In this document: positions 5,276 through 32,695 of the stretch, piece after piece
Position numbering within the stretch: the first letter of the stretch is position 1
Layout of the letters: each line of letters begins with the position of its first letter
Assembly: GCA_015956445.1 (NCBI GenBank)
Contig: WIUZ02000001.1
Location: 744,001-808,000 of the forward strand
Direction: 5' to 3'
Source: Thelephora terrestris
Taxonomy: Eukaryota > Basidiomycota > Agaricomycetes > Thelephorales > Thelephoraceae
DNA length: 64,000 nt
Notes under the pieces: generated by a model
The model's input: the letters and a program-made list of their open reading frames with translations, nothing else
Databases searched by the model: none
Told to the model about the DNA's origin: nothing
Translations under genes and position numbers: made by a program

Positions 5276-6337
5276 TGAACAGGGGCTATGTGGGCTAGAG
5301 TCCGATGGGGAGAAGATGGGGTGCCCTGTCAACGTCGATGAAGGTGGTCCTTAGTCGTACGATGCCTCCTAGCTCCGTAGGGACACGTAGGGAACTGTAG
5401 GGAAATGTAGTGAAACGTCGGGAACGTCGGGAACGTCGGGACGTGTAGGGAGAAGTAGATATCAAGAGGGAATTAAAGATAACTAAAGATAACAGAAGGG
5501 AATCAATGAAACAGACAAAGGAACGACGAGGGAAAACTTCGGGACGACGATGAGAACTTCGGGAGGTCGGGATCTTCAGGATGACGACAGGACGCTAGAG
5601 ACGACGACGAGAACGCAGAGACGCAGGTATGACGACGAGAACGATAGGGAAGACGCAGGAGACTATAGGGAGACGACGACGACGAGAGGAGAACGATAGG
5701 GAGAGGAAAACATGGGAATCAGTCCCCTGGATTGGTCTCTGTGTTGAGTCTATCGAATACAGAGGCTTATATACTAATCTAGGAGGCTCTGAGAACGTAG
5801 GAAGCAAGAGGGAATGAACCAAATGATGTCAAAAGACCTAATGACGAGTCTATGACATAGGGAGGGCGAGGGATCGAAGGGAACAACCAAGGAAAGAGAT
5901 GTGGTTGAGAAATGAACCAAAAGGGAATGATCGAGCATAGGGATCGAGAGATCGAGGGGAGTGGTGTAGGGAGATATCGCGAAGGTATAGGGAAGTCGGG
6001 AGAAGATATAGGGAGGGGTCGCGAATGGTGTAGTGTTGGGAGGGATATAGGGAGGTCGGGGGGGGGGGGGGGGGGTAGCGAGAGATAGGGAGAATACTAA
6101 AACATCGGGAAGGTCGCGAAGCATCGGGACGAGTAGGTTAGTATAGGGAAGGGAGTAGTGAGGTAAAGGGAGATATATGGGTATGTAGGGAAGTATAGGG
6201 ATGCATAGGGGGGGGGGTAGGAAGGTATAGAGAGTATAGAAACGTCGCGAAACGTCGCGAAATGTCGCGAAGCATCCCGAGGGAAAGGGACGTAGGGAAT
6301 GTCGCCGACGAGTACTCCAGAGAATGGAGGCATGTCA
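5276..6337 (-). repeat. 3' LTR (left copy)
   Basis: Direct repeat of 1062 bases, nearly identical to 8975-10032 and differing visibly in the length of a poly-G run. The plus strand is very purine-rich, with many GTAGGGA, GTCGGGA and GTCGCGA units. Confidence 0.92.
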
Positions 6338-6721
6338 TCTCCTTGGGACTTCAGAATACAACCGTCCTCGGTTGTCCAAAGAATAGGGAGGACTCCTTGG
6401 GACTTCTGATACCAACTGGCTCGTCCCAATGTGATCCCGAAGAAAATGGGAGTAAGGGAATGGAGGGGAGCAATATAGGGTGAGAGGATGGGCAAAGGGA
6501 GACCTCGGGAGCCAAAAGCAAGCGGTAGGGAGATGTCGAAAATTGGAGGAAGGGTGTAGGGAAACTTCGGGATGAGTGAAGATGCGGTGAATAAATGAAG
6601 GGGGCAGCTGTAGGGAAGCCTCGTGAATGGGAGGGAAACCATAGGGAAGCTTCGGGAATCAAAGGGGTGTGGTCGGGAGAGGAAGGGAGACGTCCAGATG
6701 ACTTGCCACTGAGAAGGGAGA

Positions 6722-8884
6722 TCAGAGGAGTGGAACATCGCGATGGTCTGCTGGGGGAATAGGGAACTGGGGAGTAGGACTACGAACAGATGCAATAGAT
6801 GAAGAGCTGCTCGAAAACAATAACGGCGGAAGAGAAGCAGAAAAGGGAGAAAAGTCGGGAAGTGAAAGAGATAGATCGGGAGGGGGATAACATGAATCGT
6901 GAAGAGGACTAGATAAATCGCGTGGGAAACAACGGGGAGTAGAACCAGAACAAGAGTAGGGAGAAGATTCGTGGTGTAGGGAAGTGGGGGAAGTAGATAG
7001 GGAAAGATAATCGTCACAGGGATGGGCTAGAGGCGGAGAACCGCAAACAGAAGGAGGTAGCGAACTCGAATCCTGAAGGGAATGAAATAGGGAAGGAGAA
7101 CTATGAAGGGAAGTGAATAGCGAAGGGGAATTGTAATGGAAATGTGAAAATGGCTTGTGGAGTGAGGAAGATAGGGAAGGGGAGGCTACGAGTGTAAAGG
7201 GAGACTGAAGTAATGAGGGAGACTTGAATAGCGAAGGAGAAGGCATGTATGATAGTGGGGAAGAGATAGAGGAAGTGTAGGGAGAGGCGAAAGAGGTAGT
7301 AGGGAGGCTGTTGGACGAAGATTCGGAACAAGGAGAGGAGAAGGGAGGAGGGATGGAGACAACCTCAAGCAAAGTTGTAGGGATGGGAGGGTCGCGACTC
7401 GCGACTGTAGGGATGTCGGGAGAAGCGTCTTCCGGCCCGAAGAAGGTGGAAAGGTAGGAATCGAGAAGATTGTCTTCTTCCTCAACGTTCACGATGGGCT
7501 CCTCGCTATCAAAAGAATGATCGCGATGATAGGGAGGCTGTAGCGATGCATGGGGAGGCTTGGACGATGTGTAGGGAGGCTCAGGTGCGTAGACAGGCTG
7601 AGGGGATGTGTAGAACTGAGAGGAAACATAGGAGAGCTCGGGAGACACGTCGCGAAGCCGAGCGAAGGTGTGGGAAGGCTGGGGAGGTACTAGGGGGTTT
7701 TGGCAACGGATAGGACTGGTCTGGGAATCAGGCTCAGCTTCCCAGGCTCGTTCTTGTCTTCTCCGTTGGATATCAGCATAGACAGCGTTGAGTTGCATCG
7801 GCACCAGCTGAAACGGAGAGGGAGACTGAGTAGATGGGCAGGGAGACTGAGGGGGTGAGTAGGGATGCTGGGGAGATCGGTCGGGAGACTGAGGGAATAG
7901 ATTGTGAGGCTGAGGAGATAGGTAGGGATGCTGAGGAGATGGGTAGAGAGGTTCGGGAGGTGGATAAGAACGCTGAGGGGATGGATCACGAGGCTGAGGG
8001 GATGCTGGAGGGGTCTGGTGACGAGGAGGACTAATCTGAGGACTAGTCTCAGCTTTCCTGCGCAGTTCTTCTCTTCTCTTCGTGAGAACCTCAATACGAG
8101 CTTGCCAAAACTCCATCTGCTCCTGCTCAGGGTCGACTCCGCTGTTGTGGTTAGAACCTGCAGGGGAGTCTGTCCCAAAAGTGTCGCGATGGTTCTGTTC
8201 TTTGTCGCGAAGACGTCGAGAGTCCCAATACTTGATGACAAGGTCCTGCAAGGTTGTTCCAGGAACGCTCCGAGGAATCGAGTGTCCAGTGGGAAAAGCG
8301 AGTTTCCCAGAGCTGTTTCGGATTATCCATCCCTGCTCAAGGTAGTGAGCAGCTGTTGGACAACTGCGAACAAGATGTTCGCGCGAATCGCAGAAGACAC
8401 AGGCTAGGCTCCACCGGGGGGGGTTTTGAACTACTCCTCCTGGAGTAGGAGAAGGAAGACGCTGAGAGTAGGGATGAGCGACCGGATTTAGCGCATTGGT
8501 AGCAAGGAGTTCAGCAAACATAGCAAGAAATTCCTCGAATTGTCTATCACGGTGCTGATGATCGGGAGGATCGCAACCGTCGCGAGGCCTGGCGGCGAAG
8601 ATAAAGAGTGCAGCTTCATGAACATCATCAAGATGATATACTTTATCATAGGGCCTTGTTTTCGAGAGCCTCTGACGAATCTCTACACGGATTGGGTGAG
8701 GGAAACCTTGAAGATAGAAAGTGCCACATCGGGAGTCACAGAGGTCGTCATTGTCAACAAGATAGTCGCTCATGGAGAGGAATCGCTCGTAATAGGTGTG
8801 GAGCTGTTCGCGATTCATATCCCGATAGTCCGCAGTGTGCTCGATAAGGCGGTTGAGATCATAGAGGGAATATCCAGTTGGCAT
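6722..8884 (-). CDS. Gag-like protein of the LTR element
   Basis: The frame is 720 residues. Residues 1-140 resemble the helical capsid part of Ty3/Gypsy Gag proteins. A zinc knuckle of the form CX2CX4HX4C lies near residues 162-175 (CVFCDSREHLVRSC). It is followed by the tail that usually goes with basidiomycete Gag knuckles (YLEQGWI, then FPTGHSIP). Residues 280-720 are a long low-complexity Pro/Ser/Gln region. Gag packages the element RNA into particles. No pol frame follows. The start ATG is about 90 bases downstream of the LTR, as expected. Confidence 0.8.
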   Translation of the reverse strand: MPTGYSLYDLNRLIEHTADYRDMNREQLHTYYERFLSMSDYLVDNDDLCDSRCGTFYLQGFPHPIRVEIRQRLSKTRPYDKVYHLDDVHEAALFIFAARPRDGCDPPDHQHRDRQFEEFLAMFAELLATNALNPVAHPYSQRLPSPTPGGVVQNPPRWSLACVFCDSREHLVRSCPTAAHYLEQGWIIRNSSGKLAFPTGHSIPRSVPGTTLQDLVIKYWDSRRLRDKEQNHRDTFGTDSPAGSNHNSGVDPEQEQMEFWQARIEVLTKRREELRRKAETSPQISPPRHQTPPASPQPRDPSPQRSYPPPEPLYPSPQHPYLSPQPHNLFPQSPDRSPQHPYSPPQSPCPSTQSPSPFQLVPMQLNAVYADIQRRRQERAWEAEPDSQTSPIRCQNPLVPPQPSHTFARLRDVSPELSYVSSQFYTSPQPVYAPEPPYTSSKPPHASLQPPYHRDHSFDSEEPIVNVEEEDNLLDSYLSTFFGPEDASPDIPTVASRDPPIPTTLLEVVSIPPPFSSPCSESSSNSLPTTSFASPYTSSISSPLSYMPSPSLFKSPSLLQSPFTLVASPSLSSSLHKPFSHFHYNSPSLFTSLHSSPSLFHSLQDSSSLPPSVCGSPPLAHPCDDYLSLSTSPTSLHHESSPYSCSGSTPRCFPRDLSSPLHDSCYPPPDLSLSLPDFSPFSASLPPLLFSSSSSSIASVRSPTPQFPIPPADHRDVPLL

Positions 8885-8974
8885 GGTAGATGGCTTTAGA
8901 GGGAAGGGGGGAAAGTCGCGAGGGTTGGGGAGCTAATAGGGAGGCAGGGAGACTAACACGGCGTGGGTTCCAGG

Positions 8975-10032
8975 TGAACAGGGGCTATGTGGGCTAGAGT
9001 CCGATGGGGAGAAGATGGGGTGCCCTGTCAACGTCGATGAAGGTGGTCCTTAGTCGTACGATGCCTCCTAGCTCCGTAGGGACACGTAGGGAACTGTAGG
9101 GAAATGTAGTGAAACGTCGGGAACGTCGGGAACGTCGGGACGTGTAGGGAGAAGTAGATATCAAGAGGGAATTAAAGATAACTAAAGATAACAGAAGGGA
9201 ATCAATGAAACAGACAAAGGAACGACGAGGGAAAACTTCGGGACGACGATGAGAACTTCGGGAGGTCGGGATCTTCAGGATGACGACAGGACGCTAGAGA
9301 CGACGACGAGAACGCAGAGACGCAGGTATGACGACGAGAACGATAGGGAAGACGCAGGAGACTATAGGGAGACGACGACGACGAGAGGAGAACGATAGGG
9401 AGAGGAAAACATGGGAATCAGTCCCCTGGATTGGTCTCTGTGTTGAGTCTATCGAATACAGAGGCTTATATACTAATCTAGGAGGCTCTGAGAACGTAGG
9501 AAGCAAGAGGGAATGAACCAAATGATGTCAAAAGACCTAATGACGAGTCTATGACATAGGGAGGGCGAGGGATCGAAGGGAACAACCAAGGAAAGAGATG
9601 TGGTTGAGAAATGAACCAAAAGGGAATGATCGAGCATAGGGATCGAGAGATCGAGGGGAGTGGTGTAGGGAGATATCGCGAAGGTATAGGGAAGTCGGGA
9701 GAAGATATAGGGAGGGGTCGCGAATGGTGTAGTGTTGGGAGGGATATAGGGAGGTCGGGGGGGGGGGGGGGTAGCGAGAGATAGGGAGAATACTAAAACA
9801 TCGGGAAGGTCGCGAAGCATCGGGACGAGTAGGTTAGTATAGGGAAGGGAGTAGTGAGGTAAAGGGAGATATATGGGTATGTAGGGAAGTATAGGGATGC
9901 ATAGGGGGGGGGTAGGAAGGTATAGAGAGTATAGAAACGTCGCGAAACGTCGCGAAATGTCGCGAAGCATCCCGAGGGAAAGGGACGTAGGGAATGTCGC
10001 CGACGAGTACTCCAGAGAATGGAGGCATGTCA
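8975..10032 (-). repeat. 5' LTR (right copy)
   Basis: Direct repeat of 1058 bases, nearly identical to 5276-6337. On the minus strand it lies upstream of the gag-like gene and should carry the element's promoter. Confidence 0.92.
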
Positions 10033-10908
10033 ACGTTCTCGAGTTCTTCGGTCTAGGAAATGTCAGCTTCCATCATTCTAAGCAATGATGAAAGCGGCAT
10101 TACCTTTTCATCCCTCCTGGCCAACGCCCCCTTGATGTTGTTATCCCTAACCTTCAACCCGGCGATCAACTCTTGATGGTTGGCGACCATTGCCTCCAAC
10201 GCCTCGTTCGTCCCTTGTTGGAAGGCTGCCAAGGTCTCCTTCAATTGAAGACCCTCTGCTGATAGACGAAGGACGTCTGCCTTCGCTTCCTTTACCTCCC
10301 GCTCCAATCGTTCAACCTAGGCAGTCTGATTAGTCGAGAGTCATACTCGAATATTCAGACAGAAAACCTACCCGGCTTTCTCCCTCCCGAACGAGCGACC
10401 ACAAGAGGCTAGTGGAAGCGGTAGCATGACGGACGGCCCGAGGAACGGTCGCTCCGTGCTCCAACAGATCCTGATCGTAGATCCCCCTCTGAAGGGTGTA
10501 CCAGAGCTCCTTCTTGATCGGATGTTCCAGCTCTCCGAACCTACCCCTCATCTGAAAGGCCACCTTCTCGGCAATTATGGTACGGACCCAGAGTTCGTCA
10601 TCCCAGGTTAACCCCTTCAAATGAGGCATCGTCTCCCTGAGACGTTCGGCGTCCACTTCCGTGACGACCTCCAAGATCTAGAAGCCGTTAGTTTAACATC
10701 AAACGCCAAAAGAACGTTCCTCTACCTAGAGGAAGGCGTTAGTGCTAACACAAGAAGCTCTAGGTCTCCCCCATACCTGGTCATCTGTGGTATAGGGAGT
10801 CCCAGCCGCACAGGCGTAGGTCTTGCGAGCGGCGGCACGACGGTCGATGCGAGAGATGGTGGAGATGCCGTTGGCAACTTTGTAGGTATGGTTGTTGGGG
10901 AAGGACAT
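10033..10908 (-). pseudogene. Coiled-coil gene, 5' exons (cut by an LTR element)
   Basis: Four exons read cleanly on the minus strand: 10908-10777, 10677-10372, 10316-10104, and 10052 down to the insertion. All introns have GT..AG ends, and CTAAC or CTAAT branch sites are visible in introns 1 and 2. Phases agree at every junction. The start is MSFPNNHTYKVANG. Exon 2 holds an alpha-helical region (GLTWDDELWVRTIIAEKVAF). Exon 3 is a coiled coil (VERLEREVKEAKADVLRLSA). The gene continues at 4545-5275 on the other side of the LTR element and would encode about 465 residues without it. I do not recognise the family. Similar solitary coiled-coil proteins may be cellular or carried by mobile elements, and the sequence does not decide. 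Confidence 0.6.
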
Positions 10909-13641: not shown

Positions 13642-16600
13642 ATGGCTTCAAACCCCCAGCGACCGGAAGGGCGGGATGACGTTCTCTCTAAGTTGGGTGC
13701 GGGCATCGAGACCCTGAGCCTGGCTAAGGATACCTCGAGCGTTGCACCTGTCAGGGCTATATTCGAGTCGGTCACTGACCTCTTGAAAACTATCGGCGTA
13801 TGTTCGCTCCTATCCCACGCGACGACCTTCCTGTTCACCCTCGACCAGGAACCCATGTTCAACCAGCAGGGCTACATCGAACTCGGGCTGAACTGCGCAG
13901 AGATTTGTGGAGCCCTTGATCGGGGAACGAAGGGGAAGAGAACCAAGGACATCAGTCGGCCCGTGCATGAGGCGATAAACCAGTTGACGACGTGAGTTGA
14001 ACCGGCGGTGCGCAATTTATATGACTGACTGACAACGTACTCTATTGCAGGATTGTGGCAGAGGTCCAGAAGAAGGTCACAAAGGAGAGGGAGCGCAACC
14101 CAGCCTCTCGCATTTTCCGCGCGGAGAGCGATAAAGACAAGATCACCGCCTGGAAGTTAGATCTCAACAGGATTCTCCACATCTTCGATGTACGTCCTGT
14201 CACTTCCCCGCCTCCTTCGCTGACGATCCCTTTCCAGACTGAACTCGCAATCGATACACTGGGGGCAAGGGGTCAAGTACCCAGTGGGTACATGCTGAAT
14301 ACATTGTGATCACAGTCAAAAAGTGATCACAATGTGCCCAGTGGGGAAAATTTGAATACATTCAAAATGTACCTGGCCATGTGAACCCAATGTGCCCAGT
14401 GGGCACATTTTGATTGCGATCACAATGTACCCATCAATGTGATCTCAATGTGCCTGCTGTGCACATTTTAATTTCTTTCACAATGTCCCCATCAATGTGT
14501 TCTCAATGTACCCAGCTCATTACATAATAGTTTCTTTCACAATGTTGTCCACAATGTGTCCAGCATGTGGCTGAGCCACTCATTCAAAATTCTTTCAAAG
14601 ATTATCCAGTGATGTGTCCATAATGTCCCCAGGGGGTTTTTTTTGAAGTAATCACAATGTAATCACAATATTTTTCAATTTCATCATGAACTTTCAAAGA
14701 AATCACTATGTGTATGGCTGTACACATTCTAGACACATCACTGGATACTTTGTGAAAGAATTTTGAATGAGTGGCTCAGTCACATGCTGGACACATTGTG
14801 GACAACATTGTGAAAGAAACTATTATGTAATGAGCTGGGTACATTGAGAACACATTGATGGGGACATTGTGAAAGAAATTAAAATGTGCACAGCAGGCAC
14901 ATTGAGATCACATTGATGGGTACATTGTGATCGCAATCAAAATGTGCCCACTGGGCACATTGGGTTCACATGGCCAGGTACATTTTGAATGTATTCAAAT
15001 TTTCCCCACTGGGCACATTGTGATCACTTTTTGACTGTGATCACAATGTATTCAGCATGTACCCACTGGGTATTTGACCCCTTGCCCCCAGTGATACCAA
15101 CGTAGCGGTTTCTGGCGTGCATCGCGAAGTTTCCGACACCCACAACATCGTCTCAGACACTCAAAACATTGTATATGAAACCCACAACGTCGTATCAGAC
15201 ATTCATCGTGCCATGGTGAAACGCCAAGACTTGTCCGGTGGTGGAAATCTTCCGGTTAGTAATCACCGCCCGCTATTCGTCACCAAAACAACTCCTAACC
15301 GTTCAATCCCTTGCTGTTGCCTAAACACAGACAAGGTTCGCGATTTTAACCACAAATATACCCAGTGTCTCATGTTTGCATCTAGCGTCCATGGAGAATC
15401 TCCCCCGCCGCCACCGAGGGCCTGTTTTGGACGCAACGAGCTAATCGAGAAGGTCGTCTGTCTTGCTGAGAACCTCGAGCCCGTCGCTCTCATAGGCGCA
15501 GGAGGGACCGGGAAGACATCTATCGCATTGACTGTCCTCCATAACGATCGCATCAAGAAACGGTTTGGTGATAACCGTCGATTTATCCCCTGCGACCAGT
15601 TTCCAGCATCTCTTCCTCACCTTCTCAACCGACTCTCCAAAGCCATTGGTGCAGGCATCGAGAATCCTAAGGACTTGACTCCCCTACGACCTTTCCTGTC
15701 CTCGAGGGACATGATCCTGTTCCTCGATAATGCCGAATCTATTTTCGATCCGCAAGGAACCGACGCCCGGGAGATATACACAACAGTGCAGGAGCTGAGT
15801 CGGTTCAGCAACATCTGCCTTGGCATCACCTCCCGCATCACCACCGTTCCCCCACATTTTAAGCGTCCGGTCATCTCCACGTTATCCCCAGAGGCGGCGT
15901 GCGATATCTTCTATAGCATCTACGACAACGGTGGACGGTCCGAGGTGATTAGTGACCTCATCAGACAGCTAGACTTCCATGCGCTCTCGATCACGCTGCT
16001 CGCCACCACCGCATCTCACAACCTGTGGGACTACAACCGACTGGCAAAGGAGTGGGACGTACAACGGGCGCAGGTACTCCAGACGGATTACAACGAGAGC
16101 CTGGCAGCAACCATCGAAATCTCACTGGCTTCACCGACATTCCGCAACCTCGGCCCCCACGCGCGTGACCTGCTCGGAGTCGTCGCCTTCTTCCCGCAAG
16201 GTGTTGCCGAGAACAACCTTGACTGGTTGTTTCCCACCATCCCCAACAGGAGGAATATATTTGACAAATTCTGCGTTCTTTCCTTGGCGTCCCGAAGTGA
16301 CAACTTCATCACCATGTTGGCACCCATCAGAGACTACCTTCGCCCCCGAGATCCAAACCTATCCCCACTCATATGCGCAACCAGGGATCACTACTTCACC
16401 CGGTTGTCAGTCAACATCTGTCCCCGAGAGCCTGGGTTCAAAGAAGCACGATGGATTGTGTCAGAAGACATGAATGTTGAGTATCTGCTCGATGTCTTCA
16501 TACCCATTGACATCGACTTGGACATCGTCTGGGATGCCTGTATTGGCTTCATGAGGCATCTATATTGGCATAAAGGCCGATACACCGTGCTTGGGCCGAA

Positions 16601-17498
16601 AGTCGAAGGGCTTGCCGATGAGCATCGATTCAAGCCAACGTGTTTGATCGAGCTCTCACGGCTCTCCTACTCGGTTGGGAATTATGCGGAGCAAAAGCGG
16701 CTTCTTTCTCTGGCCTTGAAGCTCGTGCGAGAGCGGGAGGATGACTACGAGGTTGCTCGCACATTGTCCCTCCTATCCCGTGCAAACCGTGGGCTAGGCC
16801 TCCATGAGGAAGGGATACATCAATCAAAGGAAGCACTGGGGATCTTCGAACGGCTTGGTAACACAATCCGACAAGCGGGTTGTTGGAACCTGCTTGCCTG
16901 GTTGTTCCGTTTGGAGGGACGACTCGACGAGGCGGAAGAGGCTGGATCACACGCGATTTATCTCCTTCCCGAGAAAGGCCAGGAATCCCTTGTCTGTGAA
17001 TCGCATCGAAGCCTAGGCGAAATATATCGTTTCAAGATGGAGAGAGAGAAAGCGATCCACCATTTCGAGAAAGCCCTCGGGATCGCGTCTGCTTTCGAAT
17101 GGCACAGTCAAATATTTTGGATTCATCACTCCCTTGCGGATCTCTTTTTGGCTGAAGGCGGATTCGACGAAGCACATCTTCATATCGATCAATCCAAGTT
17201 GCACACGGCCGGTAATGCATACGAACTGGGTCGCGCGATGGACACAAAGGCTCGGATTTGGTATCGACAAGGTCGGCTAGAAGATGCGCTCTCTGAGGCT
17301 TCGGGTGCGCTTGAGGTCTTTGAGAAGCTTGGAGCATCAAGGAATGTAGTGAGTTGCAAAGGTCTACTCCGGGATATTGAACAAGAGATTGCCGGTAAGC
17401 TTCTGGGAATTATGTCACTTCCTATCCCTCTTAACCCGCCCTCCTCAGAGCATGGCACACCATCCAGTGCCTCGGCGAATACCTCTCCGAGTCACTAA
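13642..17498 (+). pseudogene. NLR-A: NB-ARC/TPR protein, interrupted by a palindromic element
   Basis: This is the first of three tandem NLR genes. Exons were set by comparison with NLR-B: N-terminal helical domain (from MASNPQRPEG at 13642), a heptad linker, then NB-ARC and TPRs. The P-loop is GAGGTGKTS, the Walker B region ILFLDNAES and the sensor GITSR. At least five TPRs follow, for example EGRLDEAEEAGSHAI. The last exon ends in TSPSH. An 835-bp palindromic element (14258-15092) sits in exon 4 and brings in stop codons. All the rest reads cleanly, so the insertion is recent. The gene is either inactive or spared if the element is spliced out. Fungal NLRs of this build act in non-self recognition and programmed cell death. 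The function here is inferred from the family. Confidence 0.85.
14258..15092. mobile_element. Long palindromic (foldback/MITE-like) element, 835 bp
   Basis: Two inverted arms of about 370 bases (14258-14626 and 14724-15092) match almost base for base around a spacer of about 95 bases. Ends read ACTGGGGGCAAGGGGTCAA and its complement. The flanks carry a 5-bp duplication, GATAC (14253-14257 and 15093-15097). The matching site in NLR-B and NLR-C is uninterrupted, which defines both ends exactly. The arms contain sub-repeats around CAATGTGCCCA and TTCACAATGT. There is no coding potential. It is a non-autonomous DNA transposon of unknown superfamily. The high arm identity points to a young insertion. 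Confidence 0.92.
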
Positions 17499-19958: not shown

Positions 19959-22900
19959 ATGGCCACAGACTCCCCAAAACCGAAAGAGTGGGACGGTGTT
20001 GTTTCGACGTTGAACGTGTTCATCGAGGCTTTCAATCTTGCGAAGGAGATCTCGAGCGTCACACCCGCCAGGGCTGTCTTTGGCTCGGTCGCCGTGATCC
20101 TGACGACGATTAAAGTGTGTTTCTTCCTCTTCTATGTGACGGCGAGCTTACGCCTCGTCTTCGTCCAGGAATCTTTCGCCAACCGGCAGGACTGTATTGA
20201 GCTCGGGCAGACCTGCGTCGAGATCTGTTGTGTCCTGGACCGAGGAACGAAGGGGAAAGGAGCTGAGCACCTCAATCAGCTTGTGCGGGATGCGATAAAC
20301 CGGGCGCAAACGTGGGTTGAAACAACGGTGCACAGAGTGGATAGCTGACAGATGGTGCTCCCTATCTCAGAACTGTGGCGGAGATCGAGCGGAATGTCAA
20401 GAAACAGAGCAAGCGCAATGCAGCTTCGCGCCTCTTCCACGCAAAGAACGATCAAGCCAAGATCGCGGGCTGGGCGTCGGATCTCAACAAGATCCTCCAG
20501 ATCTTCAACGTACGTTCTCTCACTCCTCCGCTTGCGTCGCCGACCATCGGTTTCCAGACTGAACTTGCGATCGATACCAATGTCACCGCTTCCAACACCC
20601 ACAACATTGTTTCGGAAACCCACAACGTTGTTTCGGACACCCACAACGTTGTTTCCGGCACTCAAAACGTCGTTTCAGAAACTCAAAATATGGTATCCGA
20701 CATCCATCGTGCTGTGGTCAAACCCCAAGGAGCGTCCGATGGCGGGAATTCGGCAGTAAGTAATCATCATCTTCTATTTGTCGCTGGAATAACCAATAAT
20801 TCCTTACCATTGTCCAGGCTCCCACGAGGTTCGCGATTTCGACCACTAACGTATCCAGTGTCTTATATTTCCATCTAGCGCTCATGGAGAATGCCCGCCG
20901 CCGCCACCAAGGACCTGTTTTGGACGCAACGAGCTCATCGAGAAGGTTGTCTGTCTCGCCGAGGACCTCGAGCCCGTCGCTCTCATAGGTGCCGGAGGGA
21001 TTGGCAAAACATCTATCGCATTGACTGTCCTCCATCACGATCGAATCAAGAAACGGTTTGGCGATAACCGTCGATTCATTCGCTGCGATCAGTTTCCAAC
21101 GTCCCTTCCCCACCTCCTCAGCCGACTCTCCGAAGTCATTGGTGCAGACATCGAGAACCCCACGGATCTGGCGCCCCTACGACCATTCCTGTCATCGAGG
21201 GAGATGATCCTGTTTCTCGATAATGCAGAATCCATTCTCGATCCGCAGGGAACGGACGCGCGCGAAATATACAAAACGGTGCAGGAACTGAGTCGATTCA
21301 GCAACATCTGCCTTGGTGTCACCTCCCGCATCTCCACCGTTCCCCCACACTTTAGACGGCCCATCATCTCCTCGTTGTCAGCGCAGTCAGCATGCGATAT
21401 CTTCTACAGCATCTACGATAACGGCGGACGGTCCGAAGTGATTGGCGATCTTGTCAGACAATTGGACTTCCATGCGCTCTCGATCACGCTGCTTGCGACC
21501 ACGGCGTCTCACAACTTTTGGGATTACACCCGGTTGACCAACGAGTGGAACGTCCAACGGGCGCAGGTGCTCCAGACGGATTACAACGAGAGCCTTGCAG
21601 CGACCATCGAGCTCTCCCTTGCTTCGCCGACATTCCGCAGCCTCGGCCCGCACGCGCGTGACCTCCTTGGAGTCGTCGCTTTCCTCCCGCAAGGCATCAA
21701 CGAGAACAACCTAAACTGGCTTTTTTCCACCATCCCTAATCGGAAGAACATATTTGACAAGTTTTGTGTGCTTTCCTTGACATCCCGAAGCAACAACTTC
21801 ATCACCATGTTGGCACCAATCAGGGACCATCTTCGACCCCGAGACCCAAAACTATCCCCACTTCTCTGCACGACCAAGGATTACTACTTCACCCGGTTGT
21901 CAGTCTTTGTTAATCCCGGGAGGCCAGGGTTCGAAGAAGCACGATGGGTTGTTTCAGAGGATGTGAATGCTGAGCACCTGCTCGAAGTCTTCACATCCAT
22001 TGACACGAACTCGGACATTGTTTGGGATGCCTTCGCTGGCTTTATGATGCACCTGTATTGGCACAAACGCCGGTATACTGTGCTTGGGCCAAGAGTCGAA
22101 GGGCTTGCAGATGACCATCACTCCAAACCGATATGTTTGATTCATCTCGCTCGATTGTCTCACTTGCTTGGGAATTACTCAGAACAAAAGCGGCTTCTTT
22201 CTCAGGCCATAAAGCTCAAGAAGGAGCGGGAGGATGACTCTCAAGTTGCTTACGTGTTGCGCCTCCTGTCTATTGCAAACCAGGCACTAGGCCTCCACGA
22301 CGAAGGAATACAACAAACGAAGGAAGCATTGGCAATTTACGAACGGCTCGGCTACACAATCAATCAAGCGGAGTGTTGGAAAGACCTTGCCGAGTTGTTC
22401 CATTCGAAGGGACGACTCGACGACGCAGAGAAAGCGGGCTTACACGCGATTGATCTCCTCCCAGAGAAAGGAGAAGAATTCAAGCTCTGCCAAACTCATC
22501 GAAGTCTCGGTTCAATATATGGTGCCAAGAGGGAGAAGGAGAAGGCGATTGACCATTTCGAGAAAGCTCTTCGACTCGCCTCCGCTTTCGGATGGCGCAA
22601 TCAACTATTTTGGAATCATTACTCCCTCGCAGGTCTCTTCTTGAATGAAGCCAAGTTCGACGAAGCACATTCTCACATCGATCAAGCCAAGTCGCACGCA
22701 GCTGACAACGCACTCTACCTCGGTCGCGCGATGGAGTGGAAGGCTCAGATTTGGTATCGACAGCGCCGGCTTGAAGATGCGCTCTCGGAAGCTTTGGGTG
22801 CCCTCGAGATCTTCGAGAAGCTTGGGGCATCAACGGACACAGTGCGCTGCGAAGATTTTCTCGAGCAGATAGAACAAGCAATTGCTGGTGAGCTTCTGAC

Positions 22901-22989
22901 AGTTATGCTGTTTGCCATTCCAATTAACTCCCTCCTCAGCGCGCGATGCACCATCGAGCGGTCCAACAGCTACATCTCCAAGTCACTGA
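19959..22989 (+). CDS. NLR-B: NB-ARC/TPR protein with N-terminal helical domain
   Basis: Six exons give about 904 residues in register: 19959-20114, 20169-20311, 20371-20509, 20558-20755, 20859-22887 and 22940-22989. A CTAAC branch site precedes exon 5. Residues 1-150 form an alpha-helical domain like the MLKL/HeLo-type cell-death domains found in agaricomycete NLRs (CIELGQTCVEIC, LDRGTKGKG). Five heptads of the type NVVSDTH follow. NB-ARC has P-loop GAGGIGKTS, Walker B region ILFLDNAES and sensor GVTSR. The TPR part follows (EGIQQTKEALAIYERLG; KEKAIDHFEKALRLA). The tail ends TSPSH, as in NLR-A. Proteins of this build are cytosolic receptors that oligomerise on ATP binding and trigger regulated cell death. 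The ligand is unknown. The gene looks intact. Confidence 0.88.
20590..20715 (+). repeat. 21-bp tandem repeat coding for the NLR-B heptad linker
   Basis: About five imperfect 21-base units (CACAACGTTGTTTCGGACACC type) encode heptads such as THNVVSD. NLR-C has one unit fewer (about 26710-26820). NLR-A has a diverged set after its insertion (about 15110-15210). Val/Ile spaced by seven suggests a coiled coil or stacking motif between the death domain and NB-ARC. Confidence 0.8.
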
Positions 22990-23747
22990 CCCTGTTTCCC
23001 GTTCATGGACACAGCATCCTTCTCTATTTCAATCTCTACTCCTTTTTTCTAATCCAACACTCGACTGCACCACCCTACCTCCTGTTCTATGCCTCCCATT
23101 GATCATTCTCCTGTAGCGACAAACTCTGTGTCTCCTGCCTTGTTTTTGTTTTTGTTTTGTCTTATGCGTTTGTCGTGGACCGTCTGTTATTTTCCGGGGT
23201 ATATTCTGTCCGCAATTGTTAACACCAAGTAATCAGCTGAGCTTGATACTGAGTATCTCGTCCAAAGCAAAGCCGGAGCTCCAGTGATAGGGTCAGCGAT
23301 ACAAACGATTGCACGGCATGCGGACAAGAGTTTATATATTGTATGTTACCTGTTTCAAGACTCGAACGAACACTCGCTTTCTTAAGAGTCACCATACACT
23401 CGTTTACGCGCTCGTACGTTGCAAGTTCACAAGGCCCGGGGCGGCAGTATCCTACCCTCGCTCAAGCTCAAATGGTCATTTGTGTTGAACAAAGTGCCCG
23501 GATACAATCGACTGCAGGAAGTAAGGATGAACTGATCAGAATGGTGGCGTGACCTGAGAAATGAAGGGTTCCAAATAAACGCGAAGCCAACGAAAACCGA
23601 CAAAACAGAATCCGAAGATGTGTTAGAGAGAGGACCGATCCATGTGTGATGCAATTAATCGGGCGAAGGGGTCATGGACAAAAATCAACGAGAACAGACA
23701 GTATCAAAATCCTAAAAGCCACACGCACGACTCGGGATATTCTCACA
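22990..23747. other. Spacer between NLR-B and striatin fragment B
   Basis: Convergent 3' regions. The sequence is similar to 29066-29884 between NLR-C and striatin, so it belongs to the duplicated unit. No gene is visible. Confidence 0.5.
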
Positions 23748-25110
23748 CTACGAGGACGAGTAGAGCTTAATAATGCCATCAGCCCCCGCGCTCGCAACGA
23801 ACGGCAGCGATTGGTGGAATTCGACCGCGAGCACTCCCTCCCTCGCCTTCTCCCTGTGCACGTTGATATCATGGACGCAGGCCTTTGACCCAAGAATGAC
23901 CCAGAATCGCACAGAACCGTCGTGTCCACCAGAGACTAGCGTGAACCCAGCAGGATCGATCGAGAGACAAGTCACGCCCTCCAGGCGGGCCAACATCGAG
24001 TGAGTACATTGACCTAAGATCCTGGAGTGAGTGCTAATGGTCAGCCGACCGCGAGGGAACCCACAGGTGGAGATGTCAAAGATCCTGATGTACTTGTCTT
24101 CGTGCCCAGTTACAAGCAAGGGCATCATCAAATGGGACGCCAAAGCGTTAATCTGCGTTGACACTCCTTCATCTGAAAGGAAAGCTTGAGCACACCCCCA
24201 GCCCCCCGATTTTGAAACACCTACCGGCAACAATTTCTGGTTGCAACTTCATCTCCTCCTTCCCAGTTTCAATGTCGAAGATCTTGACGGTCATGTTCTG
24301 GTATGCGACCGCAACCTTGTTTAGATCCATTTTTAACGCTTCCACCACGGTCACTCCAGGGGCATCTTCGTTGTTGCCTTCGACCTTGATCACTTCTCCG
24401 TGGTCGTTCAATCCGTTATAGGACCATGAAAGTTTCAGATTACCGCCTGCCGCGGTGATCTCCCAGACCTTCACAGTTCCTTCCGCACCACAGCTGATCA
24501 GTGTGTTATCGTCGCGAACAAGCGCCAAGTCCCACACGTCGTAAGTGTCCAATGAGTTCACCGGCGGCTCGAGACCCATCATGAGGCGCATAGGTCGTGT
24601 GACGGTGGTGGGAGCGATCGGATCCGTATTAGGATTCCAGCGAGGCCGAGATCAGGTCGTGTCTTGACGGGATATGAATCGACTCTGTGATGCCTGCGGA
24701 ATGGCCGCGCAGTGCTACCTGGGGTTCAATTTCTACCGTTGAGCGAGACCTGTGATAGGGCGAGATCAGCTCTGAGGCCGAGGGCTCGTCAGGGGCAGGC
24801 GATCAACTCACGCCGAGGAAGCGAGAGTTGCGACGTCCATTCTCCACAGCTTGATTGTGTTGTCGTCACTACCACTAGCAAGGCAAAGTTTGCTGGTGTG
24901 GAAATCAAAGATACGGATGGCATCCAGGTGGCTGAAAAAATTATGAACACCCATACGGCCGAACAATGAGGAACGCCGTACTTTCGCAGTGTCCGCTTAG
25001 GTTTCCGAAGTTTGGCACCATCGGCTTCCGTCCCCTCCCCGAGACCAGTAGTCATCTCCCTCACCTTCCTTTCAACGCCCTTCCCACCACTAAGCTCACT
25101 AATTGATCCT
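23748..25110 (-). pseudogene. Striatin 3' fragment B (WD40 part only)
   Basis: The minus strand matches the WD40 half of striatin. The last repeats are intact and end in the same IIKLYSSS as the full gene, with its stop at 23748. The repeats around [20 protein letters not shown] are also well kept (24169-24591). The repeat just upstream (about 24600-24740) has stops and a changed frame, and the N-terminal half of striatin is absent. Similarity ends near 25110, where block X begins. A short WD40 peptide could still be made from the intact part, but no start or promoter is evident. Confidence 0.85.
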
Positions 25111-26080: not shown

Positions 26081-29065
26081 ATGGCCACAGACTCTCCAAA
26101 ACCGAAAGAATGGGACGGTGCTGTGTCGACGGTGGACCTGTTCATCGAAGTTTTCAATCTTGCGAAGGAGCTCTCGAGCGTCACACCCGCCAGAGCCGTT
26201 TTTGGCTCGGTCGCCGTGATCCTGACGACGATTAAAGTGTGTTTCTTCCTCTTCCATGCGGCGGCGAGCTTACGCCTCGTCTTCGTCCAGGTATCCCTCG
26301 CCAACCGGCAGGACTGTATTGAGCTCGGGCAGACCTGCGTCGAGATCTGTTGTGTCCTGGACAGAGGAACGAAGGGGAAAGGAGCTGAGCACCTCAATCA
26401 GCTTGTGCGGGATGCGATAAACCGGGCGCGAACGTGGGTTGAGCCAACAGTGCACAGAGTGGATAGCTGACAGATGATGCTTCCTATCTCAGAACTGTGG
26501 CGGAGATCGAGCGGAATGTCCAGAAGCAGAGCAAGCGCAATGCAGCCTCTCGCCTTTTCCACGCGAAGAATGATAAAGACAAGATCGCGGGCTGGGCATC
26601 GGACCTCAACAAGATCCTCCAGATCTTCAACGTACGTTCTCTCACTCCTCCGCTTGCGTCGCTGACCCCCAGTTTCCAGACTGAACTTGCGATCGATACC
26701 AATGTCACCGCTTCCAACACCCACAACATTGTTTCGGAAACCCACAACGTCGTTTCCGGCACCCAAAACATTGTTTCAGAAACTCAAAATATGGTATCCG
26801 ACCTTCATCGTGCTGCGTTCAAACCTCAAGGAGCGTCCGATGGTCAGGTTCCACCGGTAAGCAACTGTTATGTTATGTTGGTCACTAGCTAATATACCCT
26901 CAAAATTACCTAGACTCACACCAGGTTTATAATTCCGATTTCACTCCCAGTGTACTAGGTGTCTTACGTTTGCATCCAGTGTAAGCGGAGAATCCCCCCC
27001 GCAACCTCCGAGGGCCTGTTTTGGACGCGATGAACTAATTGAAGAAGTCGTCGGTCTCGCCGAAAACCTCAAACCGATCGCGCTCATAGGTGCTGGAGGG
27101 ATTGGCAAGACGTCCATCGCGTTGAAGGTCCTCCATCACGATCGGATCAAGAAACGGTTTGGCGATAACCGTCGATTTATTCGCTGCGACAAGTTCCCGG
27201 TGTCACTTCCTCACTTTCTCAATCGACTCTCGAAGGTCATCGGCGCAGGGATCGAAAACCCTGAGGATCTGACTTCCCTACAATCATTTCTGTCATCGAA
27301 GGACATGATACTGGTCCTCGACAATGCCGAGTCTATCCTTGACCCGCAGGGAACGGACGCGCGGGAAATATACGCAGCGGTGCAGGAGTTGAGTCGGTTC
27401 AGCAACATCTGCCTTGGCATTACCTCCCGCATCACCACCGTCCCCCCACACTTCAAGCGTCCGATGATCTCCACGTTATCCCCAGAGGCGGCGTGCGACA
27501 TCTTCTACAGCATCTACGGGGACGGTGGACGGTCCGAGGTGATCAGTGACCTCATCAGACAGCTAGACTTCCATGCGCTTTCGATCACGCTGCTCGCTAC
27601 CACCGCGTCTCACAACACATGGGATCACACCCGATTGGCCAAGGAGTGGAACGTACAGCGGGCGCAGGTGCTCCAGACGGATTACAATGAGAGCCTTGCA
27701 GCGACCATTGAACTCTCCCTTGCTTCGCCAACATTCCGCAACCTCGGCCCCCATGCGCGTGACCTCCTCGGAGTCATCGCTTTCCTCCCGCAAGGCATTG
27801 ACGAGAAAAACCTGGACTGGCTGTTTCCCACCATCCCTAATCGGAAGAACATATTCAACAAATTCTGCATTCTTTCTTTGACATCCCGAAGCAACAACTT
27901 CATCACCATGTTGGCGCCGATCAGGGACCATCTTCGACCCCGAGACCCAAAACTATCCCCTCTCCTCTGTGCAACCAAGGATTGCTACTTCAGCAGGTTG
28001 TCAGTCTTTGTTAGTCCCGGGTGGCCTGGTTTTGAAGAAGCACGATGGGTTGTATCAGAGGACGTGAATGCTGAGCACCTGCTCGAAGTCTTCACATCCA
28101 TCGACACGAACTCGGAAGTTGTTTGGGACGCCTTTGCTGGCTTCATGCGGCGTCTGTATTGGCACAAACCCCGGCATACCGTGCTTGGGCCAAGAGTCGA
28201 AGGGCTTGTGGACGACCATCACTCCAAACCGAGATGTCTGATTTGGCTCGCGAAATTGTCTTACACACTTGGGAATTATTCGGAACAAAAGCAGCTTCTT
28301 TCTCAGGCCCTAAAGCTCACGAGGGAACGGGAGAATGACTCTCAGGTTGCTGAAACGTTGATCCTCCTGTCCGGTGCAAACGAGGCACTAGGCCTCCACG
28401 ACGAAGGAATACAACAAATGAAGGAAGCGTTGGCGATTTACGAACGGTTCAGTATCACAATCGAGCAAGCAAGTTGTTGGAAAGGCCTTTCCCGATTGTT
28501 CCGTTTTGAGGGACGACTCGACGAGGCAGAGAAAGCGGGATTACACGCGATTGAACTCCTCCCGGAGAAAGGAGAAGAATTCAAGCTCTGTCAAACTCAT
28601 CAAAGTCTCGGTGCAATATATGGTGACAAGAGGGAGAAGGAGAAGGCGATTTGCCATTTCAAGAAAGCCCTTGGAATCGCGTCCTCCTCCGGATGGCTCG
28701 GTCAATTATTTTCGATTCATTATGCCCTCGCATTTTTCTTCGCACGTCAAGACGAATTGGACAAAGCACATTCTCACATCGATCAAGCCAAGTCGCACGC
28801 AGCTGACAACCCACTCCGCCTCGGTCGCGCAATGGATGGGAAGGCTCAGATTTGGTATCGACAAAGCCAGCTCGAAGATGCACTCACTGAAGCTTCGGGT
28901 GCGCTTGAGATCTTTGAGAAGCTTGGGGCATCGACAAGTACAGTGTGCTGCAAAGATCTTCTGAAGAATATAGAGCGAGCAATTGCTGGTGAGCCTCTGG
29001 AATTTATACTGTTCCTTATTACAATTAACCCTCCTTCTCAGCGCGCGATGCACCATCCAGCGGTT
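26081..29065 (+). CDS. NLR-C: NB-ARC/TPR protein with N-terminal helical domain
   Basis: This copy has the same six-exon layout as NLR-B and is closer to it than either is to NLR-A. It starts MATDSPKPKEWDG. The helical domain has CIELGQTCVEIC and LDRGTKGKG. The linker has four heptads, one fewer than NLR-B. NB-ARC has P-loop GAGGIGKTS, Walker B region ILVLDNAES and sensor GITSR. TPRs include EGRLDEAEKAGLHAI and KEKAICHFKKALGIA. The last intron (GTGAGC..CTCAG) joins to a short exon, and the protein ends APSSG with its stop at 29065. The C-terminus is thus shorter than the TSPSH end of A and B. The gene looks intact. It converges on the complete striatin gene 820 bases away. Confidence 0.88.
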
Positions 29066-29884
29066 AACATTCAGGCCCAGGACGTCCAACGGCTACGTCT
29101 CTAGATTACTGACCCCATTTCCCGTTCTGGACACTATCCTTCTGTATTTGAATCTTTACTACTTCTTCCTGATGCATTACTCGACTGCGCCAGCCTACCT
29201 CTTGTTCCACGCCTCCCGTTGATCATTCCACTGTAGCAACAAACTCTGCATCTCCCACCGTGTTTTTTTTGTTCATTTTTGTTTTATGCGTTGATCGTGG
29301 ACGGTCTGCTGTTTTCCGAGGTGTATTCTGTCCGTGATCGTTAACACCAAGCAATCAGCTAATCTTGACACTGGGTATCTCGTCCGAAGCGAAGCCTGGG
29401 TTCCAGTGATGGGGTCGACGGGGCCACAAAAGCGACTGCATGTCATGCGGACGAGAATTTGTATTGTTCTCTATTTCAAGCCTCGAACGAAGACGTGCTT
29501 CCTTACGATTTTCAGACACACGTTTCCACGCTTGTATGTTGCAAGCCCACAAGGTTTGGGGCGGCGTTGTCCCACCCTCGCTCAAGCTCAAGCACTCATC
29601 TGTGTTGAACGGACAAAGTGGCAGGATCCAATCGATTGCGGGAAATAAGGATGAACTGATCAGAATGGTGGCGTGACTCGATCGAGAAATAAGGGTTCCT
29701 AATAAACGCGAAGCCAGCGAAAACCGACAAAACAGAATCCGAAGATGTGTTGGAGAGAGGACCGATCCATGTGTGATGCAATTAATCGGGCGAAGGGGTC
29801 ATGAACAAAAATCAACGAGAACAGACAGTATCAAAATCCTAAAAGCCACACGCACAACTCGGGATATTCTCACACTATCGACGA
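29066..29884. other. Spacer between NLR-C and striatin
   Basis: Convergent 3' untranslated regions, homologous to 22990-23747. No gene is visible. Confidence 0.5.
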
Positions 29885-32695
29885 CTACGAGGACGAGTAG
29901 AGCTTAATAATGCCATCAGCACCCGCGCTCGCAACGAACGGCAGAGATTGGTGGAACTCCACCGCGAGCACTCCCTCCCTCGCCTTCTCCCTGTGCACGT
30001 TGATATCCTGCACGCAGGCCTTTGACCCGAGAATATCCCAAAATCGCACAGAACCGTCGTGTCCGCCGGAGACTAGCGCGAACCCAGCAGGATCGATCGA
30101 GAGACAAGTCACGCCATCCAGGTGGGCCAACATCGAGTGAGTGCATTGACCTAAAACCCCGGAATGAGTAGAAGTAATCAACCGATCTCGAGGGGACCCA
30201 CAGGTGGAGATGTCAAAGATCCTGATGTACTTGTCTTCGTGCCCAGTTACAAGCAGGGGCATCGTAGGATGGGACGCCAAAGCGTTAATCTGCGTTGAAA
30301 CTCCCTCATCTGAAAGGGAAACATGAGCACATCCCCAGGCCCCCGATTTTTGAAACGCCCACCTGCAACAATTTCCGGTTGCAACTTCATCTCCTCCTTC
30401 CCAGTCTCGATATCGAAGATCTTGACGGTCGTGTTCTGATATGCGACCGCAACCTTCTTCAGATCCATCTTCACCGCTTCCACCACGGTTGCTCCAGGGG
30501 TATCTTCATCGTCGCCTTCGACCTTGATCTCTTCTCCGTGGTCGTTCAATCCGTTATAGGACCATGACAGTTTCAGGATACCGCCTGCCGCGGTGATCTC
30601 CCAGACCTTCACAGTTCCTTCCGCACCACAGCTGATCAGTGTGTTATCGTCGCGGACAAGCGCCAAGTCCCACACGGCGTCAGTGTGTCCGATGAGTTCA
30701 CCGGTGGCTCGAGATCCATCGTATGGCGCATAGGTCGTGTGTGACGGTGGGGGGAGCGACCAAATCCGTATCGAGGAATCCAGCGAGGCAGAGATCAAGG
30801 CGTGCCTTGAAGGGATATGGATCAACTTCGTGATACCTGCGGAATGGCCGCGCAGTGTTAACTGGGGTTCAACTTCTACAGTTGAGCGAGACCTGCGATA
30901 GGACGAAATTAGCTTCGAAGAATCGTCGGGGATAGGCGATCGACTCACGCTGAGGAAGCGAGAGTCGCGACGTCCATTCTCCACAGCTTGATTGTGTTGT
31001 CATCGCTACCACTAGCAAGGCAAAGTTCGCTTGGGTGGAAGGCGATCGTCCGAATGGCATCCAGGTGGCTAGAAAATTTGTGAATGCCCATACGGCCGAA
31101 AAGTGAGGAACGCCGTACTTTCGCAGTGTCCGCTTTGGTTTCCAAAGTTTGGCACCATCGGCTTCCGCCCCCTCCCCGAAACCAGTAGTCGCTTCCTCTT
31201 CGTCCTCCTCATCAACATCCTTCCCACCATCAAGCTCATCGACTGGCCCTCCGCGCTCCCATGAAGCAACTCCGCCCATCAACGATGGAGGTTGGCCCGT
31301 ACGTTCCAGTCTTTCGCGTTCAGCAGCTTCGTGGGACATTCTTAATTGTTCCTTCCACTCTCCGGCGTCATCGGGCCTAAAGATCGCAGTAAGCTGCCGA
31401 GGTTCGATATCCGTATCGTGGTTCCTCTCTAAGCTCTGCGACTGCAATTGTGGAGGAAGTTGCTGTTGTTGGGGTTGGGTTTGCGTAACCTGGCTCGATT
31501 GTTCTTGTTGCGGCTGAGACCCTGAGTGACCGGTAGAGTGCTGCTGCTGCGTTTGTTGTGACTGCGAGACGTTGCGGTCGAGGGCAGTGATCTGGCTCCC
31601 CTGCACGGAAGGAGGAGCAGAACCCATATTCATCATTTGAGGGAATTCTTTGGGAAGATCTGGCATCGCTTTTCTTGGGCGCCCATTGTAAGCGATCTGA
31701 TCAAACGAAGGAACGTTGGGGAGTGAAAGAGGGAGGGAGGGATTGCTCAAGAGTGGTCGATTCGGCAGAGGGTTCATTGCTTGAGGAGAGGTCAAGTACG
31801 AAACCTCTTGCAAACACCTTGGCGAATGTGAGCGAAGAAGAACGGTGAACATAAACAATCTAGACGCACTGTTTCAGGTACTCTCGGCTTCGAGCCCTAC
31901 TCTTCGGATCACGACCGGGAGGTGGCTTGCTGATGAGGTTCGCGGCATGCGGGCCATTTGTTAGCTGCATACCAGCCCAAGTGTGCGGTCTACTGCTTGG
32001 GTTTGACGGTGGGTTCCCGTTCGGCTGACCTCCTGGTATCCGTTCTTGGGGTAGAGCGGAGTCTAGCCGGCGAAAATCAGCGATCACGACTATGAGATAC
32101 GAATGTCCGACAAACCTTCGCTTCGCGGGGAGCTCCCACCGCTGCCTTCCTTCTCTTCCTTCTGGCTGTGCGAGACACCGGATTTCGTCGTTTGGACGCC
32201 TTGAGAGGTCGATTGGGTCAATTGTTTCGACCTAAGATAGTAAAGACACGTCAGAAGATGTGATGGATGCAGGAATGGCCACGATTTTGACGTACCGCTC
32301 GACACGAAGCGCGTACTCCAACATTTTGATACGGCGCATAAGGTCTAGCTTGACATTCTCAAAAGATCGTCGTTCTCCTTCCAGGAGCGCAATCCGAGCC
32401 TGCACCGGAAATTTAGAGATTGGGCGCTAGGGTAAAGGTGGTCGGACGAGCGACGTACCCTCATCTCGGCGCGTTCAATTTCCCATTCATTGCGGTCGCG
32501 TTCGTATCTCCGCCATTCGGTCTGGAGGAAGTGGAGGACAGAGGAGAGGGTGAAGTCTTGACCGCTTTGCGGAGGCGGGAGCAAATCACCCTGTTGTTGC
32601 AGTTGCTGCTGCTGCTGCTGTTGCTGTTGCTGTTGAACCTGCTGTTGCTGGCCCTGGGTTTGCTGTTGCCTAGGGACCTGTAGAGGACCGAGCAT
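29885..32695 (-). CDS. Striatin (STRIPAK scaffold, PP2A B''' subunit)
   Basis: The N-terminal exon starts [12 protein letters not shown] with a poly-Gln run, then the striatin signature [20 protein letters not shown]. The next exon is a coiled coil ([20 protein letters not shown], then [12 protein letters not shown]). [20 protein letters not shown] follows across an intron. At least five WD40 repeats lead to the end IIKLYSSS ([48 protein letters not shown]). There are about eight exons. Striatins (PRO11, Far8) scaffold the STRIPAK phosphatase-kinase complex, which in fungi controls cell fusion, septation and fruiting. The gene lies head-on to NLR-C. Its 3' half is the source of the two broken copies to the left. 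This is the only complete copy in the window. Confidence 0.93.

What the first reader, a model, noticed from the sequence alone, without database searches (positions are those of the whole stretch)
14258..15092. 835-bp near-perfect palindrome inserted in an NLR coding exon, with 5-bp target duplication
Arms of about 370 bases match almost completely. The ends are defined by the uninterrupted paralogues and by the GATAC duplication. The 19-bp terminal sequence plus a 5-bp duplication does not fit a family I can name with confidence. The rest of NLR-A is open, so the insertion is young and could be polymorphic. The terminal CAG of the element next to the duplication could act as a splice acceptor.
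Basis: seen in the sequence. Interest (0 to 1): 0.75.

Follow-up and report, generated by a model that had tools for sequence, protein, structure and literature searches.

The report
Palindromic CACTA-type MITE in receptor gene
A short, almost perfectly mirror-image jumping-DNA copy from a family present in hundreds of copies in this fungus-like genome has recently landed inside an immune-receptor-like gene and cut it in two; the kind of element is known, but its two arms change together in an unusually clear way.

Summary
The palindrome is real: 837 bp (14257-15093, not 835), 370-bp arms 98% complementary. The 5-bp GATAC duplication is a misparse: the ends are CACTG..CAGTG and the duplication is 3 bp (ATA). 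28 of 29 elements read have such a triplet, against 39 of 812 cross-pairings; empty sites confirm it for one F1 and one F2 copy. The genome holds 553 ends at up to 2 mismatches. Tips, variable 3-bp duplication, 58-bp subterminal repeats and lack of coding make it a non-autonomous CACTA/EnSpm (CMC) element, a MITE. Transposase_21 genes exist (73 matches), but none was enclosed by the ends I could list, so the partner is unidentified. The copy is young and splits the NLR-like frame. The terminal CAG gives a stop with the presumed native donor; only donors in the left arm read open. Unexpectedly, in many copies the arms change together. New family of a known kind.

The parts
14257..15093 (.). Complete 837-bp palindromic non-autonomous element (family F1, 837-bp class)
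   Evidence: further copies
14254..14256 (.). Left target-site duplication ATA
15094..15096 (.). Right target-site duplication ATA
14257..14276 (+). Left terminal inverted repeat CACTGGGGGCAAGGGGTCAA
15074..15093 (-). Right terminal inverted repeat (reverse complement of the left)
14257..14626 (+). Left arm, 370 nt
14724..15093 (-). Right arm, 370 nt
14627..14723 (.). Central 97-nt spacer, not palindromic
14323..14515 (+). Subterminal 58-bp tandem array, 3.3 units, left arm
14835..15027 (-). Subterminal 58-bp tandem array, 3.3 units, right arm
14025..14309 (+). NLR-A frame upstream and into the element. A 48-nt intron 14190-14237 is presumed from its GT..AG signals; it is in frame and open, so it may also be read through. 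The frame stops inside the left arm at 14307-14309
15078..17498 (+). Rest of NLR-A frame (806 codons; TPR repeats above Pfam cut-off, STAND NTPase match below cut-off), open after the element
14288..15091 (+). Hypothetical in-frame intron (GT at 14288, terminal CAG of the element); untested

Best explanation
It is a recent cut-and-paste insertion of a non-autonomous CACTA/EnSpm-type (CMC group) MITE. A transposase supplied in trans by an autonomous EnSpm-like relative is inferred to bind the CACTG tips and the 58-bp subterminal repeats and to integrate the element with a 3-bp staggered cut, which leaves a 3-bp duplication of variable sequence, here ATA. The insertion ends the NLR-A reading frame 23 codons after 14238 and separates the N-terminal part from the NTPase/TPR part. 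Shown: ends, duplication, copy number, empty sites, frame interruption, presence of EnSpm-type transposase genes in the genome. Inferred: that these transposases move it, and loss of function of NLR-A.
For: In 20 loci scanned without requiring the outer base, 23 of 24 left ends are preceded by C and 24 of 24 right ends followed by G (counted by me). 28 of 29 elements have the same triplet on both sides, against 39 of 812 cross-pairings; L052 and L053 are one site on two contigs by their flanks, so 27 of 28 independent. This set was chosen for CACTG/CAGTG tips, so it tests the duplication, not the tips. Empty site of an F1 copy: three relatives carry one ATT where L004 has ATT on both sides; five close uninterrupted copies hold the two halves 840 bp nearer than the interrupted one (my subtraction). 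Empty site of an F2 copy: L083 against L067, one base of the flank differing. Motif CAATGT/ACATTG 11 times in one arm, 1.3 expected, maximum 6 in 1000 dinucleotide shuffles; 58-bp tandem arrays. Transposase_21 (tnp2) 73 matches in the genome. Published parallels: CNIRT6 of Cryptococcus neoformans, 24-bp ends beginning CACTG, variable 3-bp duplications, introns and exons hit (PMC12810828, passages); rust EnSpm CAC..GTG with 3 bp (PMC12730594, passages and section 15).
Against: No Transposase_21 or Plavaka match lies between listed end pairs; two KDZ loci do, but those ends do not belong together. The lists were capped: 258 of 369 exact 18-bp ends, later 100 of 114 and 70 of 70 of two F1 subsets, and ends with mismatches were not listed, so pairs are unseen. 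The ends of the genome's EnSpm transposase copies were not determined. One of 29 elements (L018) lacks the duplication. Tips and duplication length assign a superfamily only by convention.
Confidence: 0.92

Rival explanations
1. The element has a 5-bp duplication and belongs to another superfamily (hAT5 or Transib-like), as the 5-bp reading would suggest.
For: In the window the flanks can be read as GATAC on both sides.
Against: C and G stand outside the 19-bp repeat in 23 of 24 and 24 of 24 ends, so they belong to the element; only 2 of 29 copies allow the 5-bp reading, the window's and one in L014.
Confidence: 0.02
2. It is moved by KDZ or Plavaka transposases, both abundant in this genome, rather than by an EnSpm transposase.
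For: KDZ 125 matches and Plavaka 132 matches; KDZ matches lie between two outward-facing ends at C8 and at C23.
Against: At C23 the two ends belong to different families and the flanking triplets differ; at C8 the right end pairs with its own near left end, AGA on both sides. Published Zisupton makes 8 bp, Kyakuja 7 bp without TIRs; Plavaka has TGT..ACA with 2 bp or CATCA..TGATG with 2-3 bp (PMC12730594, passages); Cryptococcus KDZ makes 4-8 bp (PMC12810828, passages). No Plavaka match fell inside the long pairs checked.
Confidence: 0.05
3. The element acts as a removable intron (introner-like): the spliceosome removes 804 nt between a donor in the left arm and the terminal CAG, leaving 36 nt, so NLR-A stays functional with 12 extra codons.
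For: The pair 14288/15091 reads open into the downstream exon, and only two of the enumerated GT-AG pairs do so; because of the palindrome both sites exist in either orientation; introners with TIRs and duplications, some adding codons, are known (PMC9860276, passages).
Against: No RNA evidence. An 804-nt intron is long for such a genome (recalled, not tested). Both sites lie in the predicted hairpin. The donor is absent from the two F2 copies read. Copies also sit in or beside repeated or transposon DNA.
Confidence: 0.08

Closest known systems
CNIRT6, CACTA element of Cryptococcus neoformans (PMC12810828; passages seen)
   Same: Terminal repeats begin CACTG; 3-bp duplications of variable sequence; inserts into exons and introns.
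   Different: CNIRT6 is about 7.5 kb with 24-bp repeats and encodes its transposase; this element is 837 bp, non-coding and palindromic over 370-bp arms.
EnSpm families of rust fungi (PMC12730594; passages and section 15 seen)
   Same: Termini CAC..GTG and 3-bp duplications.
   Different: Those described there are coding, with a transposase and a TET/JBP gene; this one is a MITE.
Tgmt of soybean, CACTA (PMC2613891; passages seen)
   Same: 3-bp duplication (also ATA) and repeated subterminal motifs thought to bind a TNPA-like protein.
   Different: 20.5 kb, asymmetric subterminal repeats, CACTA tips; here the subterminal repeats are mirror-symmetric.
Foldback elements such as Tetris of Drosophila virilis (PMC4079207; passages seen)
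   Same: Non-autonomous, long inverted arms with tandem repeats inside the arms; possible homogenization within copies noted there.
   Different: Tetris makes 8-10 bp duplications and is placed with Mutator; here 3 bp with CACTG tips.

Membership tests
CACTA/EnSpm (CMC group) | Termini CACTA/CACTG (CAC..GTG) | tested here: met
   outer C in 23 of 24 and outer G in 24 of 24 ends
CACTA/EnSpm (CMC group) | 3-bp target duplication of variable sequence | tested here: met
   28 of 29, cross-paired control 39 of 812; empty sites
CACTA/EnSpm (CMC group) | Subterminal repeated motifs | tested here: met
   58-bp arrays; motif excess
CACTA/EnSpm (CMC group) | Tnp2/DDE transposase encoded by an autonomous relative with the same ends | tested here: inconclusive
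   73 Transposase_21 matches in the genome, 7 within 12 kb of a listed end, none inside the 13 long pairs checked; ends lists capped
MITE | Short, non-coding, inverted ends, high copy number, uniform length classes | tested here: met
   553 ends; of 97 pairs made from 258 listed ends, 40 are 836-841 bp and 28 are 952-954 bp; longest stop-to-stop frame wholly inside the element 57 codons
Foldback element | Long inverted arms with internal tandem repeats | tested here: met
Foldback element | 8-10 bp duplication (Mutator-type foldbacks) | tested here: not met
   3 bp
Introner | Spliced out of the transcript | not testable with these tools
   open-frame candidate only; no RNA reads available
Plavaka / KDZ | Family-specific termini and duplication length | tested here: not met
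   CACTG..CAGTG with 3 bp against published termini

The most novel reading that the evidence does not exclude
The two arms of these CACTA-type MITEs are kept alike by copying one arm onto the other (hairpin- or cruciform-templated repair, or re-formation of the palindrome during gap repair after excision), so that substitutions, a 23-bp deletion and the number of 58-bp presumed transposase-binding units change in both arms together; selection for symmetric binding arrays then favours the symmetric copies. The same palindrome could give splice sites in either orientation.
Probability: 0.45. Interest if true: 0.5.

Novelty: new member of a known kind. Interest (0 to 1): 0.33.

Why it matters
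It names a large young MITE family that has hit a host gene and a transposase gene in this genome, and shows how a misread boundary of one base at each end hid a known superfamily. The mirror-symmetric change of the arms gives a natural, countable record of arm-to-arm copying in a palindromic transposon, which could be tested with the hundreds of copies here. The insertion is a ready presence/absence marker at an NLR-like locus, a gene class often tied to allorecognition in fungi (recalled).

Tried and rejected
5-bp duplication: rejected. KDZ as partner: KDZ matches lie between listed ends at C8 and C23, but those ends do not belong together. Plavaka and Transposase_21: no match inside the 13 long pairs checked; of 73 Transposase_21 matches 7 lie within 12 kb of a listed end, six beside or interrupted by a small MITE and one (C7:624402) beside a lone end that points away (read). 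Some long pairs come from the capped lists: at C21 one search lists a nearer partner.

Long pairs L009, L010, L011 looked like possible autonomous elements. Each has MITE sequence at both ends with other sequence between; that of L009 is a repeat seen at other loci, those of L010 and L011 were not identified. Seven of their frames and three-frame pieces of L082, ten in all with seven from L009-L011 and L082 two and one more from L009, gave no Pfam match at E 0.01 or better except Dscam_C below its cut-off (ten frames, three of L009, three of L010, two of L011, two of L082). Two long F2 pairs on C2 have matching triplets (ACT/ACT over 9.2 kb, AGA/AGA over 4.1 kb), a third on C12 has ATC/ATT. 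Of the 4.1-kb one, 3.0 kb were read and nearly all is a repeat also seen beside other copies. Three further long pairs (C58, C23, C56) were not read either.

Boundaries of EnSpm copies from paired loci: only another MITE boundary was found. 881 bp ending at one EnSpm transposase frame (L083) held no such end. Rfam: no match over 14000-15400. Pfam on two N-terminal NLR-A pieces: none. Literature, listings only: searches showed no paper on this family or on mirror-symmetric arm change in CACTA MITEs; one search found none at all. The library is partial.

Full report
Host. The window is part of an unnamed 40.6-Mb genome in 60 contigs. I take it to be a fungus, probably a basidiomycete, from its NLR-like STAND/TPR frames with short presumed introns and its many KDZ and Plavaka transposases; the tools did not name it.

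The palindrome. Arms 14257-14626 and 14724-15093 are 370 nt, 98% complementary, 97 nt apart. Ungapped self-complementarity over 837 bp is 0.90 against mean 0.26 and maximum 0.35 in 1000 mononucleotide shuffles. Folded as RNA it gives one long hairpin, -720 kcal/mol against -233 (sd 7.7) for 20 shuffles.

Ends and duplication. In the window alone GATAC/835 bp and ATA/837 bp are equally possible. A scan for the 19-bp repeat (up to 3 mismatches) in 20 fetched loci, with no demand on the outer base, shows C before 23 of 24 left ends and G after 24 of 24 right ends (counted by me; the exception is a lone end in L016). Among 29 elements with CACTG..CAGTG tips and palindromic ends found in all loci then held, 28 have the same triplet on both sides (L018 does not); cross-pairing gives 39 of 812. 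L052 and L053 are one site on two contigs by their flanks. Two of the 29 would also allow the 5-bp reading. Empty sites: L004 lies in an EnSpm-type transposase frame with ATT on both sides, and three relatives (L084-L086) have one ATT. The F2 copy in L067 has ATA on both sides and L083 has one, with one flank base differing. The window's two paralogues have one ATA.

Family. 274 forward and 279 reverse ends match the 19-bp repeat with at most 2 mismatches; the backward control gives 0 and 1. 369 ends match the 18-bp tip exactly: 186 after A, 125 after T, 58 after C or G. From the 258 of these that were listed I paired 97: 40 are 836-841 bp, 28 are 952-954 bp and 10 are 1.3 kb or more; the lists are capped, so some pairings are wrong (C21). 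A sister family F2 (840 bp in the two copies read, repeat continuing CACTTACC or alike) is about 67% identical to the window element. Other elements with a similar tip and different interiors occur.

Superfamily. CACTG tips, variable 3-bp duplication, dense subterminal repeats (58-bp arrays; motif 11 against 1.3 expected) and no coding capacity fit a CACTA/EnSpm MITE. Published fungal parallels are CNIRT6 (PMC12810828, passages) and rust EnSpm families (PMC12730594). The termini given there for Plavaka and KDZ do not fit. The genome has 73 Transposase_21 matches, many with open frames of 800-950 codons, so a possible source of transposase exists. None lies inside the 13 long pairs checked; 7 lie within 12 kb of a listed end, six of them beside or interrupted by a small MITE, one beside a lone end that points away. 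The partner stays unidentified.

Effect on NLR-A. Read without splicing in the element, the frame stops inside the left arm, 23 codons after 14238. After the element the frame is open for 806 codons with TPR repeats above cut-off and STAND NTPase matches below cut-off. The window copy has 2 changes private to it, each in one arm, among eight copies of the 837-bp group, so it is young; an open downstream frame is expected from youth alone. The native intron 14190-14237 is presumed from its signals; it is itself open and in frame. From its donor to the terminal CAG the read is TGA at once. Of the GT-AG pairs enumerated (that donor and donors after 14238, acceptors up to the element's end), two read open: 14288/15091 and 14306/15091. 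This keeps the splice idea alive but weak.

Arm co-evolution. In a tree of 58 arms from the 29 elements, many copies and families have their left and right arms together, not sorted by side. Against this: the 501-bp family sorts by side, and L006, L012 at 1828, L014 at 8936, L018, L022 and L024 have arms apart. Against their group consensus, 4 of 7 copies of the 837-bp group and 8 of 8 of the longer group share more identical substitutions between their arms than independent change predicts, e.g. L007 9 shared with 0.2 expected; the window copy, L002 and L006 share none. L008, L016 and L023, used, were left out. L012 at 2971 has the same 23-bp deletion in both arms. The 837- and 953-bp classes differ by one 58-bp unit in each arm (mostly 3.3/3.3 against 4.3/4.3), while others are asymmetric (L023 4.3/6.3, L024 4.3/2.2). 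Many shared changes are inherited from subfamily founders, so the test shows that arm-to-arm copying happened in these lineages, not how often or when; the p-values treat sites and copies as independent and are rough.

Verdict. A real, young insertion of a new family of a known kind. The classification is well supported; the partner, the splicing and the mechanism of arm symmetry are open.

Noticed in passing
L012 2971-3877, L019, L020, L021, L023, L024: Copies differ by whole 58-bp subterminal units, often by the same number in both arms but in some by one arm only, and one has the same 23-bp deletion in both arms.
   Followed up: partly
L082 57-3001 and matches in L002, L006, L009, L014, L037, L041, L043: A repeat of at least 2 kb lies inside or beside several of the MITEs; in L082 and L009 it interrupts a MITE whose ends keep matching triplets. 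Two of its frames gave no Pfam match. Its nature was not determined.
   Followed up: partly
L004 56-3250: A copy of the same MITE interrupts an EnSpm-type transposase frame; close relatives with frames of 898-906 codons elsewhere are uninterrupted.
   Followed up: yes
window 5500-10200: Strong strand asymmetry (GC skew 0.51 at 6001-8000) with short tandem repeats; the arrays at 5523-6271 recur in the same order at 9222-9966, so a block of at least 0.74 kb seems duplicated 3.7 kb further on.
   Followed up: no
C12:991048-1003710 and contig C48: Contig C48 (18.7 kb) appears to duplicate part of C12 in reverse, with the same small element (L052, L053) and Plavaka matches, perhaps a leftover haplotype contig.
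   Followed up: no
window 15078-17498, 20850-23102, 26933-29104: Three tandem NLR-like frames about 6 kb apart; WD40-like frames, judged by eye only, at 23748-24248 and 29885-30505.
   Followed up: partly
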